In this document: positions 2,775 through 62,210 of the stretch, piece by piece
Layout of the letters: the number at the start of each line of letters is the position of its first letter
How positions within the stretch are numbered: the stretch's first letter is position 1
Assembly (NCBI GenBank): GCA_945913025.1
Contig: CAMECJ010000002.1
Coordinates: 124,001-188,000, forward strand
Length of the DNA stretch: 64,000 nt
From: an uncultured Elusimicrobia bacterium
GTDB taxonomy: Bacteria; Elusimicrobiota; Elusimicrobia; Elusimicrobiales; Elusimicrobiaceae
Direction: 5' to 3'
The notes under the pieces: generated by a model
What the model saw: only the letters and a program-made list of their open reading frames with translations
What the model was told of the DNA's origin: nothing
Databases searched by the model: none
Translations under genes and position numbers: made by a program

Positions 2775-3221
2775 TTACTTAACAATGGTCCAACGATTAC
2801 TGCCAGTACTGGTATCCGCTCCCAAATGTTTACACATCTGTTTTGCCCATTCAAACGCATCTCCGCCGCTTTCCGTACCACAAGCAATAGAACCGCCGAC
2901 TGTTTGCCAGCGGTAAAAAAGAATATACGGCTTTGTCTTGCTGGTTGCATAAACAGAAAATTCTGTAGAGATATTATAGATAAAATGTTTGCTTTTCGGC
3001 ACCGCCACATCCAACTCCGTGAAATCGGACGCATATGCGCCATTTGCCATATAATACACTTCTTGCGCGTCCCGCAACGTTTTAAGGACGGCCAAAGCCT
3101 CGGCGGCGCGCGCTTTTTCCACCGCCCATTCATACTGCGGAAGTGCCACCGCCGACAATATGCCAATGATTAAGACAACGACTAATAACTCTATTAACGT
3201 AAATCCTTGATTTTTATACAT
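2775..3221 (-). CDS. Type IV pilin-like protein (pilin A)
   Basis: 148 residues. The prepilin leader is MYKNQG, with cleavage expected between G6 and F7 of [17 protein letters not shown], followed by the conserved ALPQYEWAVEKARAAEA alpha-1 segment. E at +5 of the mature protein is present. The C-terminal half is variable but keeps cysteines in IACGTESGG and QMCKHLG; the latter C-[KR]-x-[LF]-G motif recurs in most pilins of this window. No assembly genes are nearby. It is transcribed against its neighbours, from the poly-T promoter at 3386-3412 through a leader that holds a palindromic element. Confidence 0.9.
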   Translation of the reverse strand: MYKNQGFTLIELLVVVLIIGILSAVALPQYEWAVEKARAAEALAVLKTLRDAQEVYYMANGAYASDFTELDVAVPKSKHFIYNISTEFSVYATSKTKPYILFYRWQTVGGSIACGTESGGDAFEWAKQMCKHLGADTSTGSNRWTIVK

Positions 3222-3385: not shown

Positions 3386-3412
3386 ATGGTATCAAAAAAA
3401 AAAACAAGTCAA
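3386..3412 (-). promoter_or_regulatory. Poly-T spacer promoter of pilin A
   Basis: On the minus strand this reads TTGACT (-35), TG, a run of 11 T, GA, then TACCAT (-10), giving a 15-nt spacer. The same module precedes seven pilin genes. The promoter assignment is by consensus similarity, without transcript data. Confidence 0.6.
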
Positions 3413-4635: not shown

Positions 4636-5268
4636 TTACAGACCAGTACCAGCAGCATCGGGTTTAGTACAAGCAGCCCCTGCCGCAAATGTGGCCATCG
4701 TCGCCGCAGTTCCCTCAGCGGCAGCTGTACCATCTGCGGTAGCTTCCGTACCATCACTGCAGCATTCTTTGGAATATTCATCAATACCGCAGAAATCCGC
4801 ACATAAAGCTTGACCGTTTTCATCTGTTCCGCGGCAAGAAGTACCCGAATTTGCATAATAGCGGGACAATACATACTTATATTGCAACGTTCCACCTGTT
4901 TGTGGTTCGCGGGTGGCTACGACATTGCCCTTATCATATGCGTCGTTTCCCGTTCCCGTTGCCAACGTAATGGCAAACCCGTTTCCACCGCCATCGGCCG
5001 GATCACCCTTGGTGTGATAGGTCGATCCCGTAGAGCCTTTGGGAGAAACGTCCAGCCCCGTATATTTGGTGGCATACTTGTTGATCTGCAAGTACTTGCG
5101 CTGCTGCGCTTGCGCAATGTTGCCCATCAAGCTTACGGCTTCGCTCATACGGCTGCGTTCCACCGCTTTGAAATACTGCGGCAGCGCCATCGCGGCCAAA
5201 ATACCGAGAATGAGCACCACAACTAAGAGCTCAATCAACGTGAACCCTTTGTTATTATTCTTAATCAT
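4636..5268 (-). CDS. Type IV pilin-like protein (pilin B)
   Basis: 210 residues, the longest pilin here. The leader is MIKNNNKG, followed by [17 protein letters not shown] and ALPQYFKAVERSR. The N-terminal 35 codons and the whole 5' flank are nearly identical to pilin G at 61334-61903. The two also share TYHTKG and GGNGFAITL, with diverged sequence between. The C-terminal third is alanine-rich with several cysteines (TSCRGT, ALCADFCG, KECCSD). The end is low-complexity (AAEGTAATMATFAAGAACTK). It is followed by a strong terminator and driven by the poly-T promoter at 5359-5386. Confidence 0.9.
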   Translation of the reverse strand: MIKNNNKGFTLIELLVVVLILGILAAMALPQYFKAVERSRMSEAVSLMGNIAQAQQRKYLQINKYATKYTGLDVSPKGSTGSTYHTKGDPADGGGNGFAITLATGTGNDAYDKGNVVATREPQTGGTLQYKYVLSRYYANSGTSCRGTDENGQALCADFCGIDEYSKECCSDGTEATADGTAAAEGTAATMATFAAGAACTKPDAAGTGL

Positions 5269-5358: not shown

Positions 5359-5386
5359 ACTGTATCAAAAAAAAAAAACAAGTCAA
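5359..5386 (-). promoter_or_regulatory. Poly-T spacer promoter of pilin B
   Basis: Minus strand: TTGACT, TG, a run of 12 T, GA, TACAGT; the spacer is 16 nt. Identical in sequence and tract length to the pilin G copy. Confidence 0.6.
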
Positions 5387-28758: not shown

Positions 28759-29238
28759 CTATTCCGTCCAACAATCCGTACAATCCCCCGCACCGGGCCA
28801 CGAAATACAGCGGGCGTTTCCGTGAGAGTTAAATCCAAATTTTTTACACCACGTATTACTGGAAGTTTCAAAACACGTTCTGCGTCCTTCATTAAAAGAC
28901 AGCACATAATAAGGAGAGGTTTTTCGGCTATATGCCGCTGGACGGCCGTTTTCAATAAAATACTGAAAATATTTCGTATTAAAAGATGTTCCCGACACAT
29001 CTGCTCCGTTTTCGTCCTTAAAAGAAACACTCAATTCTTCAAATGGATAATCTGCGTTGGTTGTTCCTGCTTCCATATTTTTTATTTCCAATGCGTCTTT
29101 AATGGACTTCAACGTCGTCCACGCTTCCGCCGCGCGGGATTTTTCCACCGCCGTCGTATACTGCGGCAACGCTACAGACGACAAAATACCGATAATTAAT
29201 ACAACGACCAATAATTCAATCAGTGTAAAACCTTTCAT
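28759..29238 (-). CDS. Type IV pilin-like protein (pilin C)
   Basis: 159 residues from the ATG at 29238 (GGAGGG site upstream; a longer frame to 29340 is leader sequence). It has the shortest leader of the group, MKG, followed by [16 protein letters not shown] and ALPQYTTAVEKSRAAEAW. The C-terminal half carries six cysteines (RRTCFETSSNTWCKKFG, ARCISW, GDCTDCW), including the recurring CKKFG motif. It is transcribed toward nagA and driven by the poly-T promoter at 29355-29381. Its leader is shared with pilin F. Confidence 0.9.
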   Translation of the reverse strand: MKGFTLIELLVVVLIIGILSSVALPQYTTAVEKSRAAEAWTTLKSIKDALEIKNMEAGTTNADYPFEELSVSFKDENGADVSGTSFNTKYFQYFIENGRPAAYSRKTSPYYVLSFNEGRRTCFETSSNTWCKKFGFNSHGNARCISWPGAGDCTDCWTE

Positions 29239-29253
29239 TTTATTTCCCTCCAT

Positions 29254-29354
29254 CAAAAAAGTCATCCCAATTCGTTTCTGCACTGGAACTACCGATTTTA
29301 AGCGAACAAACCCTAATCGGGAGATCTCGCACAGAAACACTACGGAATAACCCT
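29254..29354 (-). repeat. Pilin leader block shared with pilin F
   Basis: About 100 bases match 51612-51713: GTCATCC, CGTTTCTG, AATCGGGAGATC, CACAGAAA and GGAATAACC appear in the same order and spacing. Confidence 0.7.
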
Positions 29355-29381
29355 ATCGTATCAAAAAAAAAAACGGGTCAA
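29355..29381 (-). promoter_or_regulatory. Poly-T spacer promoter of pilin C
   Basis: Minus strand: TTGACC, CG, a run of 11 T, GA, TACGAT; the spacer is 15 nt. Confidence 0.6.
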
Positions 29382-31578: not shown

Positions 31579-32037
31579 ATAGCTATTGTGACAGATTTTT
31601 GTCCAACGTACCAGAGTCAAAAGTCCTATTCGCCGCTAGGACCTCAGATCCTAGGTTTACATTCGGCCTGTTTTGTAAAGTTTCAAAAAAATGCTGGCCA
31701 AAGAACGCCAAAATTATTATTATAAATTATATTTAGTATAAGGAGTATAGTAAATACACGATAAGCCTTAAACGCGGCTTACAAAAAATTTAATTCTGTT
31801 TTTGGAACCGTATGCGGAATACGGTGCGCTGACGGGATACCGGCGGCACATTTTCCCTCCAAAAACAGCCGATTCAGACACAGTATATCCGAGCTGATCC
31901 CTTGGGTGTACTGTGTCGAGTGCTTCCCGCCATATTTTATATGGCGGGGGCCGCGGCTGTTATGATTTGGGTTAGGGAAAATGGCTCAAACATAACAGCC
32001 GTTTTTGTTTGCCCGAAAACAGAATAAGGAGAAAAAA
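31579..32037. other. Intergenic region holding a structured RNA candidate
   Basis: The left part (31579-31740) is AT-rich and must contain the protease promoter (-) and a + strand promoter near the TATTATAAATTA stretch. The right part forms a chain of stems described as a separate feature. No protein gene is supported. Confidence 0.6.
31790..32008 (+). ncRNA. Structured RNA or 5' leader ending in a terminator, upstream of pilin H
   Basis: Several perfect stems follow one another. CTGTTTTTGGA (31796-31806) pairs with TCCAAAAACAG (31858-31868), enclosing ACCGTAT/ATACGGT. GACACAGTA (31877-31885) pairs with TACTGTGTC (31909-31917). CCCGCCATA (31926-31934) pairs with TATGGCGGG (31940-31948). CGGCTGTTATG (31954-31964) pairs with CATAACAGCCG (31991-32001), extended by TTTGGG/CTCAAA, and TTTTTG follows. 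It matches no riboswitch class that I can recognise. It may be an independent small RNA or an attenuator controlling pilin H. Confidence 0.55.
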
Positions 32038-32544
32038 ATGAAGAAATCGGGCTTTACCTTAATTGAATTATTGGTGGTGGTGTTAATTATTGGTATTTTG
32101 GCGGCGGTGGCGTTGCCGCAGTACCAAAAAGCGGTGTTTAAGTCAAAATGGACCGAAGCTATGATGAATTTAAAAACACTAAAGAATGCAATAGAAGTGT
32201 GTGAGATGACAAATGGCAGAGCAAATTCATCAAATCCGAGTCATCCTTGTTTTGATAGTTCAAATCTTGATATTTCTTTGGGGGAGGAAGACGGAGGGAA
32301 TTTCCATGGAAGAAATTTTATTTATCATATAGATAGAGGCGCGCTTAGTTCCGATAGTACTATAGCTGCAGGCGCTCATCCTTCTTTTGGCGAGAATCGA
32401 GGCCGCTACGATCTGTGCCTATGTATATATGATGATGGACATTTTGCAATGAATCAAGCTGATTGTATTGATGATAGTTCGCCCAGTTTTGATTATGCGA
32501 AAGCTTTGAATATACAAAAAGATGAAGATTGTACCTGCTGTTAA
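32038..32544 (+). CDS. Type IV pilin-like protein (pilin H)
   Basis: 168 residues from the ATG at 32038 (AAGGAG site); the frame could extend to 32005 without support. Leader MKKSG, then [17 protein letters not shown] and [17 protein letters not shown]. It is the only pilin on the + strand here and the only one without the poly-T promoter; instead a structured RNA with a terminator precedes it. The coding DNA is visibly more AT-rich than its neighbours. The C-terminus is acidic and Cys-rich ([22 protein letters not shown]). It lacks the CKxLG motif of its relatives. Confidence 0.88.
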
Positions 32545-40494: not shown

Positions 40495-40983
40495 CTAATT
40501 AATTAAATAATATCCGTTTCCGATACTGCTTCCGAAAGAACGGCAGATATAATGTTGTTGTTCGGTATAAGCAATACACCACCGTTGTCCGGCCAGTTGC
40601 TGTGGACCTCTTAATAAATAAAATTCTAAATAGGGCCCTTTTGGACTGCTGCCATAACAAGAAGTCGTTACACTGCTTCCTCTGCCGTCGGCGCAGGAAT
40701 ACTCATATCCCCCTTGATTACGGGTATTAGGCACCGTTATATCCAGTTCATCCAATTGCGCCGTATAATATCCATTGGCCATATAGTAACGTTCCTGCGC
40801 CTCCGTAATGGCCTTTAATCCCATTATTCCTTGTACCGCTCTAGATTTTGCCACCGCTCTAGTATATTGAGGTAACGCAACTGCGGACAAAACACCGATA
40901 ATTAAAACAACAACCAGCAACTCTATAAGCGTAAATCCGGCATTCTTATCCCCGTAAGGAGAATTTTGATTAATTTTGTTCAT
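40495..40983 (-). CDS. Type IV pilin-like protein (pilin D)
   Basis: 162 residues. The leader MNKINQNSPYGDKNAG is 16 residues, then [16 protein letters not shown] and ALPQYTRAVAKSRAVQG. The C-terminal half carries cysteines in YSCADGRG, TSCYGSS, RWCIAY and YICRSFG; the last is the group's C-[KR]-x-[LF]-G motif. The -10 of its poly-T promoter ends 7 bases before the ATG, so the message would be leaderless. No ribosome site is visible. Unlike the other minus-strand pilins there is no palindrome in front. Confidence 0.88.
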   Translation of the reverse strand: MNKINQNSPYGDKNAGFTLIELLVVVLIIGVLSAVALPQYTRAVAKSRAVQGIMGLKAITEAQERYYMANGYYTAQLDELDITVPNTRNQGGYEYSCADGRGSSVTTSCYGSSPKGPYLEFYLLRGPQQLAGQRWCIAYTEQQHYICRSFGSSIGNGYYLIN

Positions 40984-40989
40984 ATGTAA

Positions 40990-41016
40990 AATGTATCAAA
41001 AAAAAAAACGGGTCAA
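40990..41016 (-). promoter_or_regulatory. Poly-T spacer promoter of pilin D
   Basis: Minus strand: TTGACC, CG, a run of 11 T, GA, TACATT; the spacer is 15 nt. The predicted transcription start falls on or next to the ATG. Confidence 0.6.
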
Positions 41017-48699: not shown

Positions 48700-49287
48700 T
48701 TACTGTGCGATATCACACGAAGAGGACCCGCACAAGTTTTTACACAGCTTATTCCCAAAATCCTTATTTCCCGAACATACAAGACGGAAAGTACTATCAT
48801 CTTCTACAGCAAGCGCCAAGAGATAATCAGCCGCACCAACATCCCAATTAGAAGTTTTAGGTATAATAAAAATTCCGCCAAGCCCTAAAATAAACTGAAA
48901 GTTTTGACTTTCCGCTCTCATTCCATCCGCATCCACAACAGATGCTCCCGCCCCCTCAAACCAAGCCTCTGTTAGTTCTGCATTGGTCAAAGATGCCCCC
49001 TCCAAGTTAGTTATCGTTATATTCTGCTTTACTTTATGTAATACCGTATACACTTCCGTCAAACGGCTTTTTTCTACCGCCACCTGATACTGCGGCAGCG
49101 CCACCGCCGACAATATGCCGATAATTAATACGACGACTAAAAGTTCTATTAAGGTAAAGCCTTTTGCCTTGCTGTCATTCCGGCCATGGAGCCGGAATCC
49201 AGGCTGTTTATTAGGTGTTGTTCTCGTTTGATATGGATGCTGAAACGGCGACCCGCAGGGTTTCAGCATAGCGACATTTTTATACAT
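48700..49287 (-). CDS. Type IV pilin-like protein with palindrome-derived leader (pilin E)
   Basis: 195 residues. The leader is unusually long, 43 residues ([20 protein letters not shown]... to SKAKG), before [16 protein letters not shown] and [16 protein letters not shown]. Residues about 5-38 are encoded by a palindromic element inserted in frame between MYKN and KG. The C-terminus ends [17 protein letters not shown] with the recurring C-K-x-L motif. No alternative start lies between the element and KGFTLIE. Driven by the poly-T promoter at 49452-49479. Confidence 0.87.
49173..49274. repeat. Palindromic element inside the pilin E coding region
   Basis: Two hairpins: GTCATTCCGGC paired with GCCGGAATCC (49174-49200), and GATGCTGAAAC paired with GTTTCAGCATAG, the latter ending near 49270. 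It is in frame with the pilin and encodes most of its extended leader. Confidence 0.8.
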
Positions 49288-49451: not shown

Positions 49452-49479
49452 ATGTTATCAAAAAAAAAAAACGGGTCAA
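49452..49479 (-). promoter_or_regulatory. Poly-T spacer promoter of pilin E
   Basis: Minus strand: TTGACC, CG, a run of 12 T, GA, TAACAT; the spacer is 16 nt. Confidence 0.6.
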
Positions 49480-50845: not shown

Positions 50846-51439
50846 TCAGCGGACCCACATTGTATATCCTTCGCCATAATTGGAATCCGGATATTGATAA
50901 TTCAATGGTTTTCCCAATGAACGGCATACGTTTTCCGCCACCTGATTCGCTTTATAGGGGTAACATATCACTCCTTGCTCGGGACGAAACGATTGCCATT
51001 CCAATATATATTGCCCATCTCTTCTAATATAAGCCCCCAGACGGGCAAAAATTTTCAGTTGTCCCCCCCGCCAGTTACAGTAGTCTCCATCAGGGTTAGA
51101 GACTTCGGACGCACACGGCAAGGTAATATCCAGTTCATCAAACCGAAGTGCATACGTTCCGGTCGCCATTTTAACAATTTCCTGTGCATTGAGCACACTG
51201 ACAAGCAGTTGCAGATCATTACTTAAGCGGGCTTTCATCACCGCTTTTTGGTATTGCGGCAATGCTACCGCTGCTAATATACCGATGATTAAAACAACCA
51301 CCAATAATTCAATCAGCGTAAAACCTTTCGCTTTATCGTCATCCCGGACGCGGCTCCGTGCTCCAGTCTGTTTATTAAGCCTTGTTCCCCTCTGATAGGG
51401 ATGCTGAAACGAGTTCAGCATGACGGCTTTTTTATACAT
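50846..51439 (-). CDS. Type IV pilin-like protein with palindrome-derived leader (pilin F)
   Basis: 197 residues. The leader is 39 residues (MYKKAVMLNSFQHPYQ... to DDDKAKG), followed by [17 protein letters not shown] and [17 protein letters not shown]. As in pilin E, the residues between MYKK and KG come from an in-frame palindromic element. The C-terminal half contains LPCASEV, DYCNWRGG, GVICYPYK and NVCRSLGK, the last being the recurring C-R-x-L-G motif. It has a 270-base leader from the poly-T promoter at 51714-51741. Confidence 0.88.
   Translation of the reverse strand: MYKKAVMLNSFQHPYQRGTRLNKQTGARSRVRDDDKAKGFTLIELLVVVLIIGILAAVALPQYQKAVMKARLSNDLQLLVSVLNAQEIVKMATGTYALRFDELDITLPCASEVSNPDGDYCNWRGGQLKIFARLGAYIRRDGQYILEWQSFRPEQGVICYPYKANQVAENVCRSLGKPLNYQYPDSNYGEGYTMWVR
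51338..51424. repeat. Palindromic element inside the pilin F coding region
   Basis: GTCATCCCGG... and TGCTGAAAC...TTCAGCATGAC hairpins; the same type as 49173-49274. It encodes the MLNSFQHPYQ-type leader extension. Confidence 0.8.
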
Positions 51440-51713: not shown

Positions 51714-51741
51714 ATGTTATCAAAAAAAAAAAACGGGTCAA
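51714..51741 (-). promoter_or_regulatory. Poly-T spacer promoter of pilin F
   Basis: Minus strand: TTGACC, CG, a run of 12 T, GA, TAACAT; the spacer is 16 nt. Confidence 0.6.
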
Positions 51742-61333: not shown

Positions 61334-61903
61334 CTATTCGCCTTCGCCTTCGCTTGCGCCGTCCGTAATATCATCTGCATAATATTCCGGATTTTTAGTA
61401 GTGTTAGTATAATCAGTATACGTATCTTGTCCGCCGAAGTCCGCACACAACGCCTTATCATCGTCTTCGCTAGCACCGGCAGCGGGTTTACACATTGCAC
61501 GGCCGGGGCTATCATACTTTCTATAGATGGTATATTTATACTGGCCAGACCCTTCACGCACGGCACGTACACCAGACTTATTACCCGTATTAGTTGCATT
61601 ACCAACTAAGGTAATGGCAAAACCATTTCCACCGGCACCTTTGGTATGGTACGTAGCCGTGTCATCTGCATTTGCAGGAGCCACATCCAAGGCACTCCAA
61701 GCAGTGGTATATCTACCGGTTTTCATTTTATAACGCTGTTGGGCATTAACCACCGCTCCAATTAGCGTCTCCGCCTCTGCAACACGGCTGCGTTCTACCG
61801 CTTTGAAGTACGCCGGCATTGCCATCGCGGCCAAAATACCGATGATGAGCACTACAACTAAGAGCTCAATCAACGTGAACCCTTTGTTATTATTCTTAAT
61901 CAT
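61334..61903 (-). CDS. Type IV pilin-like protein (pilin G)
   Basis: 189 residues. Leader MIKNNNKG, then [17 protein letters not shown] and AMPAYFKAVERSRVAEA (PAY instead of PQY). The 5' part and flanks match pilin B. Shared inner motifs TYHTKG, GGNGFAITL and ALCADFGG show a common ancestor. Cysteines occur in AMCKPAAG and ALCADFGG. The end is acidic (ITDGASEGEGE). Driven by the poly-T promoter at 61994-62021 and terminated at 61285-61312. Confidence 0.9.
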   Translation of the reverse strand: MIKNNNKGFTLIELLVVVLIIGILAAMAMPAYFKAVERSRVAEAETLIGAVVNAQQRYKMKTGRYTTAWSALDVAPANADDTATYHTKGAGGNGFAITLVGNATNTGNKSGVRAVREGSGQYKYTIYRKYDSPGRAMCKPAAGASEDDDKALCADFGGQDTYTDYTNTTKNPEYYADDITDGASEGEGE

Positions 61904-62210
61904 TTTTCTCTCCTTTCTACTAGTTTTCTTTATGGCGGCCCGATTTGGGATACTGTAGGAGTTTTTATATAACCCAAACCGGACCGTTACCCCACTGTAT
62001 CAAAAAAAAAAAACAAGTCAAGGCTTTCTTCTTTTGGTATCGACAAAAAGTAAGCAACAAATCTTCTTTCTTCTTTTTCTGACAGCAGAAAAAGAAACAA
62101 AAAGACTGCCCGCACGCGGCCATAAAAAGCAGTCCTTACGCAGCGTATTTATACGGAATCTCGTTGTTACGAAACGACAGATTTCGGATTACGACCTTCC
62201 GGAATGACCT
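61860..62210. repeat. Long dispersed repeat, copy 2 (pilin G 5' cassette)
   Basis: Covers the first codons of pilin G, its leader, promoter and upstream repeats. Nearly identical to 5224-5573, diverging slightly in the stretch after AAAAGTAAGC. Confidence 0.85.
61994..62021 (-). promoter_or_regulatory. Poly-T spacer promoter of pilin G
   Basis: Minus strand: TTGACT, TG, a run of 12 T, GA, TACAGT; the spacer is 16 nt. Confidence 0.6.

What the first reader, a model, noticed from the sequence alone, without database searches (positions are those of the whole stretch)
3386..3412. Poly-T tracts as -35/-10 spacers before seven dispersed pilin genes: candidate phase-variable promoters
The same module lies on the coding strand of pilins A-G: TTGAC[CT], two bases, a T run, GA, then TAnnnT. 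Positions are 3386-3412, 5359-5386, 29355-29381, 40990-41016, 49452-49479, 51714-51741 and 61994-62021. T runs are 11, 12, 11, 11, 12, 12 and 12, giving spacers of 15 or 16 nt against an optimum near 17. Homopolymers inside promoter spacers are an established phase-variation device (for example porA, opc and fetA of Neisseria). Slippage by one or two T would switch promoter strength at each locus independently, so a population would carry a mosaic of pilin types. I know of no description of this for this group.
Basis: partly seen in the sequence, partly recalled or inferred. Interest (0 to 1): 0.88.

Follow-up and report, generated by a model that had tools for sequence, protein, structure and literature searches.

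The report
Poly-T promoter shared by dispersed pilins
A gut bacterium of the phylum Elusimicrobiota puts the same promoter, with a run of about 12 T's between its two recognition boxes, in front of some 70 scattered pilus-protein genes; such a run could be a slip-prone tuning knob for each gene, but nobody has yet shown that it slips.

Summary
All seven modules lie exactly where stated (none in 100 shuffles). In the whole genome the module occurs about 78 times and precedes 72 of 111 prepilin genes. Almost every T-run of 10 or more that was examined sits in one. It is confined to Elusimicrobiaceae. It is a real promoter: TGATAnnnT is invariant, and in 87 of 188 relatives' modules the pilin ATG falls exactly 6 nt after the -10, i.e. 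leaderless transcripts. The T-tract is kept pure. Its length is usually 12 (spacer 16), ranging 10-13 here and 7-15 in relatives. Related pilin promoters with interrupted tracts have spacers of 17-18 instead. That pattern suits a slippage-tuned promoter like Mycoplasma hyorhinis vlp or Bordetella fim. It also suits a fixed T-tract spacer whose best length is 12. Against rapid switching: some species are almost uniformly T12, and orthologous tracts keep their length in 6 of 8 pairs. No reads, isolates or transcripts could be examined. Verdict: real, specific, new to this group; phase variation plausible but unproven. Passing find: an undescribed structured leader RNA upstream of other pilins.

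The parts
3386..3412 (-). Promoter module A: TTGACT-TG-T11-GA-TACCAT, spacer 15
2775..3221 (-). Pilin A (148 aa; N_methyl, ComP_DUS)
5359..5386 (-). Promoter module B: TTGACT-TG-T12-GA-TACAGT, spacer 16; flanks nearly identical to module G
4636..5268 (-). Pilin B (210 aa; N_methyl, ComP_DUS)
29355..29381 (-). Promoter module C: TTGACC-CG-T11-GA-TACGAT, spacer 15
28759..29340 (-). Pilin C (listed from a GTG, 193 aa; the true start may be a later ATG; N_methyl)
40990..41016 (-). Promoter module D: TTGACC-CG-T11-GA-TACATT, spacer 15; start codon exactly 6 nt after the -10, so the transcript is probably leaderless
40495..40983 (-). Pilin D (162 aa; N_methyl, ComP_DUS)
49452..49479 (-). Promoter module E: TTGACC-CG-T12-GA-TAACAT, spacer 16
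48700..49287 (-). Pilin E (195 aa; N_methyl)
51714..51741 (-). Promoter module F: TTGACC-CG-T12-GA-TAACAT, spacer 16
50846..51439 (-). Pilin F (197 aa; N_methyl)
61994..62021 (-). Promoter module G: TTGACT-TG-T12-GA-TACAGT, spacer 16
61334..61903 (-). Pilin G (189 aa; N_methyl)

Best explanation
The module is a dedicated sigma-70-type promoter (-35 TTGAC, extended -10 TGATAnnnT) whose spacer is almost entirely a T homopolymer. It drives about 70 pilin genes scattered singly over the chromosome. The tract most likely acts as a slip-prone strength setter: gain or loss of a T moves the spacer between 14 and 17 nt, so each pilin can drift between weak, medium and strong expression independently and the population carries a mosaic of pilin levels. 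Shown: promoter geometry, pilin specificity, tract purity, length differences between loci and between some close orthologs or tandem copies, and 17-18 nt spacers when the tract is interrupted. Inferred: slippage at useful rates in living populations, and the effect of spacer length on transcription.
For: 78 modules were found in 430 kb of the genome (T12 48, T11 22, T10 5, T13 2, T8 1), and 72 of 111 pilins have one. GATA and the T four bases after it are invariant in all 78 (GATA was a selection criterion). Pure spacers far outnumber interrupted ones: 61 pure against about 1 in this genome. ATG lies exactly 6 nt after the -10 in 87 of 188 relatives' modules, which places the transcript start. 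Pilin-linked interrupted tracts across 66 genomes have spacers 17 (8), 18 (6), 16 (1); 245 pure tracts from 9 genomes have mode 16 and about 5% at 17 or more (rank test p about 4e-12). Length differs between near-identical copies: a tandem pair with T10 and T12 and identical flanks (L257), a pair with T12 and T13 (L255), and orthologs at T13/T12 (upstream 99.4% identical) and T11/T12. Precedents: homopolymer tracts in the promoters of all vlp genes of M. hyorhinis (PMC10502178) and in Bordetella fim2/fim3/fimX promoters (PMC1891110); a poly-T tract whose single-base changes alter Spy1336/R28 transcripts in S. pyogenes (PMC7098570).
Against: No within-strain length variation and no expression data were available. 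T12 is nearly uniform in some species (G044 13/13, G039 12/13, G020 12/12 of those listed). Orthologous tracts kept total spacer length in 6 of 8 pairs, against 31% expected if lengths were re-drawn at random (p = 0.014). MutS is present in this genome, which should damp slippage. All spread is seen in one consensus assembly per species.
Confidence: 0.48

Rival explanations
1. Fixed structural element. The T-tract is an integral, constant part of a pilin-specific promoter (rigid, overtwisted A-tract DNA, or a docking site for a protein), and 12 is simply its best length. Length differences between loci reflect ordinary drift or graded fixed strengths, not switching.
For: T12 is the commonest length in every genome tallied and nearly invariant in some. 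Orthologs keep length. By simple twist arithmetic (assumed 10.0 versus 10.5 bp per turn) a T12 spacer of 16 nt equals about 16.6 bp of mixed DNA, so pure tracts should be optimal at a shorter length than interrupted ones, as seen.
Against: T10, T11 and T13 make up about a third of the loci in this genome, and tandem copies with identical flanks differ by two T's. Interrupted, non-homopolymer versions also precede pilins, so a pure tract is not strictly needed.
Confidence: 0.38
2. Recombination edge. The shared -35/T-tract/leader/N-terminal stretch mainly serves as a homology block through which pilin loci convert one another, and the tract is maintained by copying.
For: Paralogs whose leaders are over 92% identical become unrelated exactly at CTTGACCCG upstream, and the match ends 100-340 nt downstream, near or within the start of the gene. 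Orthologous sites with flanking sequence about 85-92% identical can carry quite different leaders.
Against: Any shared segment would give such edges. Conversion does not explain why a homopolymer of this length sits precisely in the promoter spacer, nor the recurrence of the geometry with different flanking sequence.
Confidence: 0.1
3. Artefact or other element: an assembly homopolymer artefact, or the U-tract of an intrinsic terminator.
For: Homopolymers are error-prone; some copies have a G+C-rich hairpin upstream.
Against: The same module and modal length recur in dozens of independent MAGs from different projects. A conserved -35 separates hairpin and tract, GATAnnnT and ATG follow at fixed spacing, and the module is tied to pilins.
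Confidence: 0.02

Closest known systems
vlp surface lipoprotein family of Mycoplasma hyorhinis (homopolymeric A tract in the promoter of every vlp gene; PMC10502178)
   Same: A family of surface-protein genes, each with its own promoter carrying a homopolymer, allowing independent control.
   Different: About 70 dispersed pilin genes in an Elusimicrobiota bacterium instead of about seven lipoprotein genes; poly-T on the coding strand; length variation and expression effect not tested here.
Bordetella fim2/fim3/fimX fimbrial subunit genes (C-stretch in the promoter; PMC1891110)
   Same: Separate fimbrial subunit genes, each with a homopolymer in its promoter.
   Different: Poly-C and a fim box there; here a canonical TTGAC -35 and an extended -10. 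Type IV-like pilins rather than fimbrial subunits of that family.
Spy1336/R28-Spy1337 poly-T tract of Streptococcus pyogenes (PMC7098570)
   Same: Poly-T promoter-region tract of 8-13 T in which one base changes transcript level of a surface protein.
   Different: A single locus; length variation shown in over 2,000 isolates, which is missing here.
porA/opc/fetA of Neisseria
   Same: Homopolymer within the -35/-10 spacer region.
   Different: Single genes, poly-G or poly-C.

Membership tests
Phase-variable promoter with a homopolymeric spacer | Pure homopolymer located between -35 and -10 | tested here: met
Phase-variable promoter with a homopolymeric spacer | Lies in front of surface-exposed structures | tested here: met
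   72 of 111 N_methyl pilins in this genome; Pfam on window proteins. Surface exposure itself is inferred from the family.
Phase-variable promoter with a homopolymeric spacer | Tract length varies among cells or isolates of one strain or species | not testable with these tools
   One consensus genome per species, no reads. Between species' orthologs, 6 of 8 pairs keep length and 2 differ by one.
Phase-variable promoter with a homopolymeric spacer | Tract length changes transcription | not testable with these tools
   Only indirect: interrupted tracts have spacers 17-18, pure ones mostly 16.
Phase-variable promoter with a homopolymeric spacer | High-frequency, reversible change | not testable with these tools
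   Near-uniform T12 in some species and retained lengths in orthologs argue against very high rates over evolutionary time.
Sigma-70-type extended -10 promoter | TTGAC -35, TGnTAnnnT, spacer 16-18 | tested here: met
   TGATA and the final T invariant in 78 of 78 (selected on GATA), TTGAC-type -35 in most; spacer mode 16, interrupted 17-18. T11 copies, including three in the window, have 15.
Sigma-70-type extended -10 promoter | Transcription starts about 6-7 nt downstream of the -10 | tested here: inconclusive
   Leaderless geometry, ATG exactly 6 nt after the -10 in 87 of 188 relatives' modules and 3 here; no start-site data.

The most novel reading that the evidence does not exclude
A whole-genome contingency system: about 70 pilin promoters in one small genome, each an independent slip-prone poly-T dial, so that a clonal population samples a very large number of pilin mixtures. 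That would be roughly ten times the size of the M. hyorhinis vlp set and, as far as a search of the held papers shows, the first in Elusimicrobiota.
Probability: 0.4. Interest if true: 0.82.

Novelty: new variant of a known kind. Interest (0 to 1): 0.6.

Why it matters
Gut Elusimicrobiota carry dozens to over a hundred single pilin genes, with no account of how they are controlled. A shared promoter with a tunable spacer on most of them gives a concrete, cheap test (tract lengths in existing deep metagenome reads) of whether a commensal uses slippage to diversify its pili at genome scale. If the tract turns out to be fixed, it is instead an unusual pilin-specific promoter architecture, still useful for reading expression in uncultured species.

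Tried and rejected
Terminator reading: rejected because of the fixed -35 between hairpin and tract and the fixed -10/ATG spacing. Housekeeping-promoter spacers as a yardstick: TTGACA/TATAAT scans over fetched DNA gave only weak enrichment at 16-17, so the optimum was taken from interrupted modules instead. Phage or provirus link: no module in the viral contig collection. MMR loss as a cause of long tracts: mutS is present; mutL and relatives' repair genes were not checked. Strain-level comparison: the collections hold one assembly per species, and records that could be matched were the same assemblies. The first genome paper for Elusimicrobium minutum was not held.

Full report
WHAT IS THERE. 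They are the only T-runs of nine or more in the 64 kb window. The window is contig C2:124001-188000 of a 1.76 Mb, 27-contig genome. Database neighbours with the same module are gut Elusimicrobiaceae MAGs. One of them, UBA1436, is in the same genus by shared contig coordinates; the genus may be the one named Candidatus Avelusimicrobium (inference).

GENOME SCALE. A relaxed pattern finds the module throughout the genome, with 1 match for the reversed control. The same genome has 111 N_methyl prepilin matches. In 430 kb fetched around modules and pilins there are 78 modules followed by GATA: T12 48, T11 22, T10 5, T13 2, T8 1. There are no T9 runs, and the other T8 runs look like unrelated background. 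72 of 111 pilins have a module upstream on the same strand; six modules have no recognised pilin within 700 nt. In the part of the genome-wide T10 list that was printed, nearly every run is a module. So the module is essentially pilin-specific, and most but not all pilins have it.

TAXONOMY. Within the genus, counts range from none to 84 matches per genome, while nearly all genomes are rich in pilins, so lineages differ in how far they use it. In 295 genomes across the phylum all 39 positives fall in two genera of the family; none outside. Viral contigs: none.

IT IS A PROMOTER. GATA (a selection criterion) and the T four bases after it are invariant in 78 modules; with the last T of the tract this reads TGATAnnnT, an extended -10. 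The -35 is TTGAC in most. In relatives, where the leader is often absent, the pilin ATG begins exactly 6 nt after the -10 in 87 of 188 modules with a recognisable pilin start; three copies here, including window module D, have the same layout. Such precise spacing is what leaderless transcripts need and fixes the likely start site. Start sites have not been mapped.

THE TRACT. It is kept pure: in this genome 61 pure spacers against about one interrupted; the other near-T spacers only have a longer lead-in. Across 66 genomes only 26 interrupted versions were found, against 2 for the reversed control; 15 of them precede recognisable pilins. Their spacers are 17 (8), 18 (6) and 16 (1), whereas 245 pure tracts tallied in nine genomes have mode 16 and only about 5% at 17 or more (p about 4e-12). 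Promoters that cannot easily slip therefore sit at the textbook optimum, and slip-prone ones mostly one or two nt below it. Two readings fit: the pure tracts are off-optimum and adjustable, or T-tract DNA is overtwisted so that 16 is its own optimum (about 16.6 bp mixed-DNA equivalent; arithmetic, helical repeats assumed from general knowledge).

DOES LENGTH CHANGE? Near-identical copies can differ: L257 has tandem copies with identical flanks at T10 and T12, L255 at T12 and T13. Among eight orthologous pairs from different species, six keep the same total spacer, two of these despite a base substitution at the tract edge, and two differ by one (T13/T12 at 99.4% upstream identity, T11/T12 at 91.5%). 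If lengths were re-drawn at random from the pool, 31% would match; 6 of 8 has p = 0.014. So length has memory. Species also differ: G044 13/13, G039 12/13 and G020 12/12 listed are T12, while G052, G061 and G007 have 44-50% T12 (partly from truncated lists). These facts neither prove nor exclude phase variation; they argue against very fast switching in all lineages.

SHUFFLING. Paralogous modules with leaders over 92% identical become unrelated just upstream of CTTGACCCG, and the match ends 100-340 nt downstream. The promoter-leader-N-terminus segment therefore evolves partly by exchange between loci, which can also homogenise tract length.

COMPARISON. The nearest working precedent is the vlp family of Mycoplasma hyorhinis, in which every gene has a homopolymer in its promoter and switches independently (PMC10502178, citing Citti and Wise 1995), then Bordetella fim promoters (PMC1891110) and the poly-T tract of S. 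pyogenes R28 (PMC7098570). The anatomical criteria of that class are met here; the defining behaviour (length variation within a strain, effect on transcription, reversibility) could not be tested. I therefore call it 'works like' with moderate confidence and not a proven member. No paper in the held library was found that describes it for this phylum.

SIDE FINDING. A second set of pilins lacks the T-module and instead follows a structured leader of about 210 nt (window 31795-32006). It folds far better than shuffles (z = -9), 29 of 53 predicted pairs show changes on both sides, it ends in an intrinsic-terminator-like hairpin, and it matches no Rfam family. A hypervariable 9-12 nt segment upstream is perfectly complementary to the loop of the terminator hairpin in all 12 aligned copies (non-cognate maximum 6; permutation p = 5e-5). 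Of nine copies outside the alignment or weakly matched that were checked after a covariance-model search, seven have 7-12 nt cognate pairing (the non-cognate maximum in that set is 7, so the weakest are not decisive), and all nine precede a pilin start. The stretches searched were chosen for pilins or T-modules, so pilin association is partly built in.

Noticed in passing
window 31795-32006 (+), upstream of the pilin at 32038; about 11 further copies in this genome and 9 in fetched relatives' loci: Undescribed structured leader RNA before pilins that lack the T-module: four stem domains, a terminator-like 3' hairpin, and a hypervariable 9-12 nt segment perfectly complementary to the terminator loop in 12 of 12 aligned copies (a covarying pseudoknot). 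No Rfam match. Possibly an attenuator or orphan riboswitch-like element.
   Followed up: partly
window 40983-41016; relatives' loci: Leaderless pilin genes: the ATG starts exactly 6 nt after the -10 hexamer in 87 of 188 relatives' modules and 3 here.
   Followed up: partly
e.g. G000 C4:92653 vs C15:20372, C6:78802 vs C6:15889: Pilin promoter-leader segments are shared between loci with a sharp left edge at the -35 and a right edge 100-340 nt downstream, suggesting exchange between pilin loci.
   Followed up: partly
downstream of many modules, e.g. window 29320-29355 (-): REP-like hairpin sequences (TTCCGTAGGGTTTCTGTACGGGATCTCCCG and variants) recur in the long 5' leaders of T-module pilins.
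   Followed up: no
G000 C1:27289, C2:32521, C5:34716, C6:15889, C8:94031, C15:13900: Six modules without a recognisable pilin within 700 nt: decayed pilins, distant pilins or other targets.
   Followed up: no
genomes G004, G016, G085: Congeners or family members with 80 or more pilin matches and essentially no T-modules; how their pilins are controlled was not examined.
   Followed up: no
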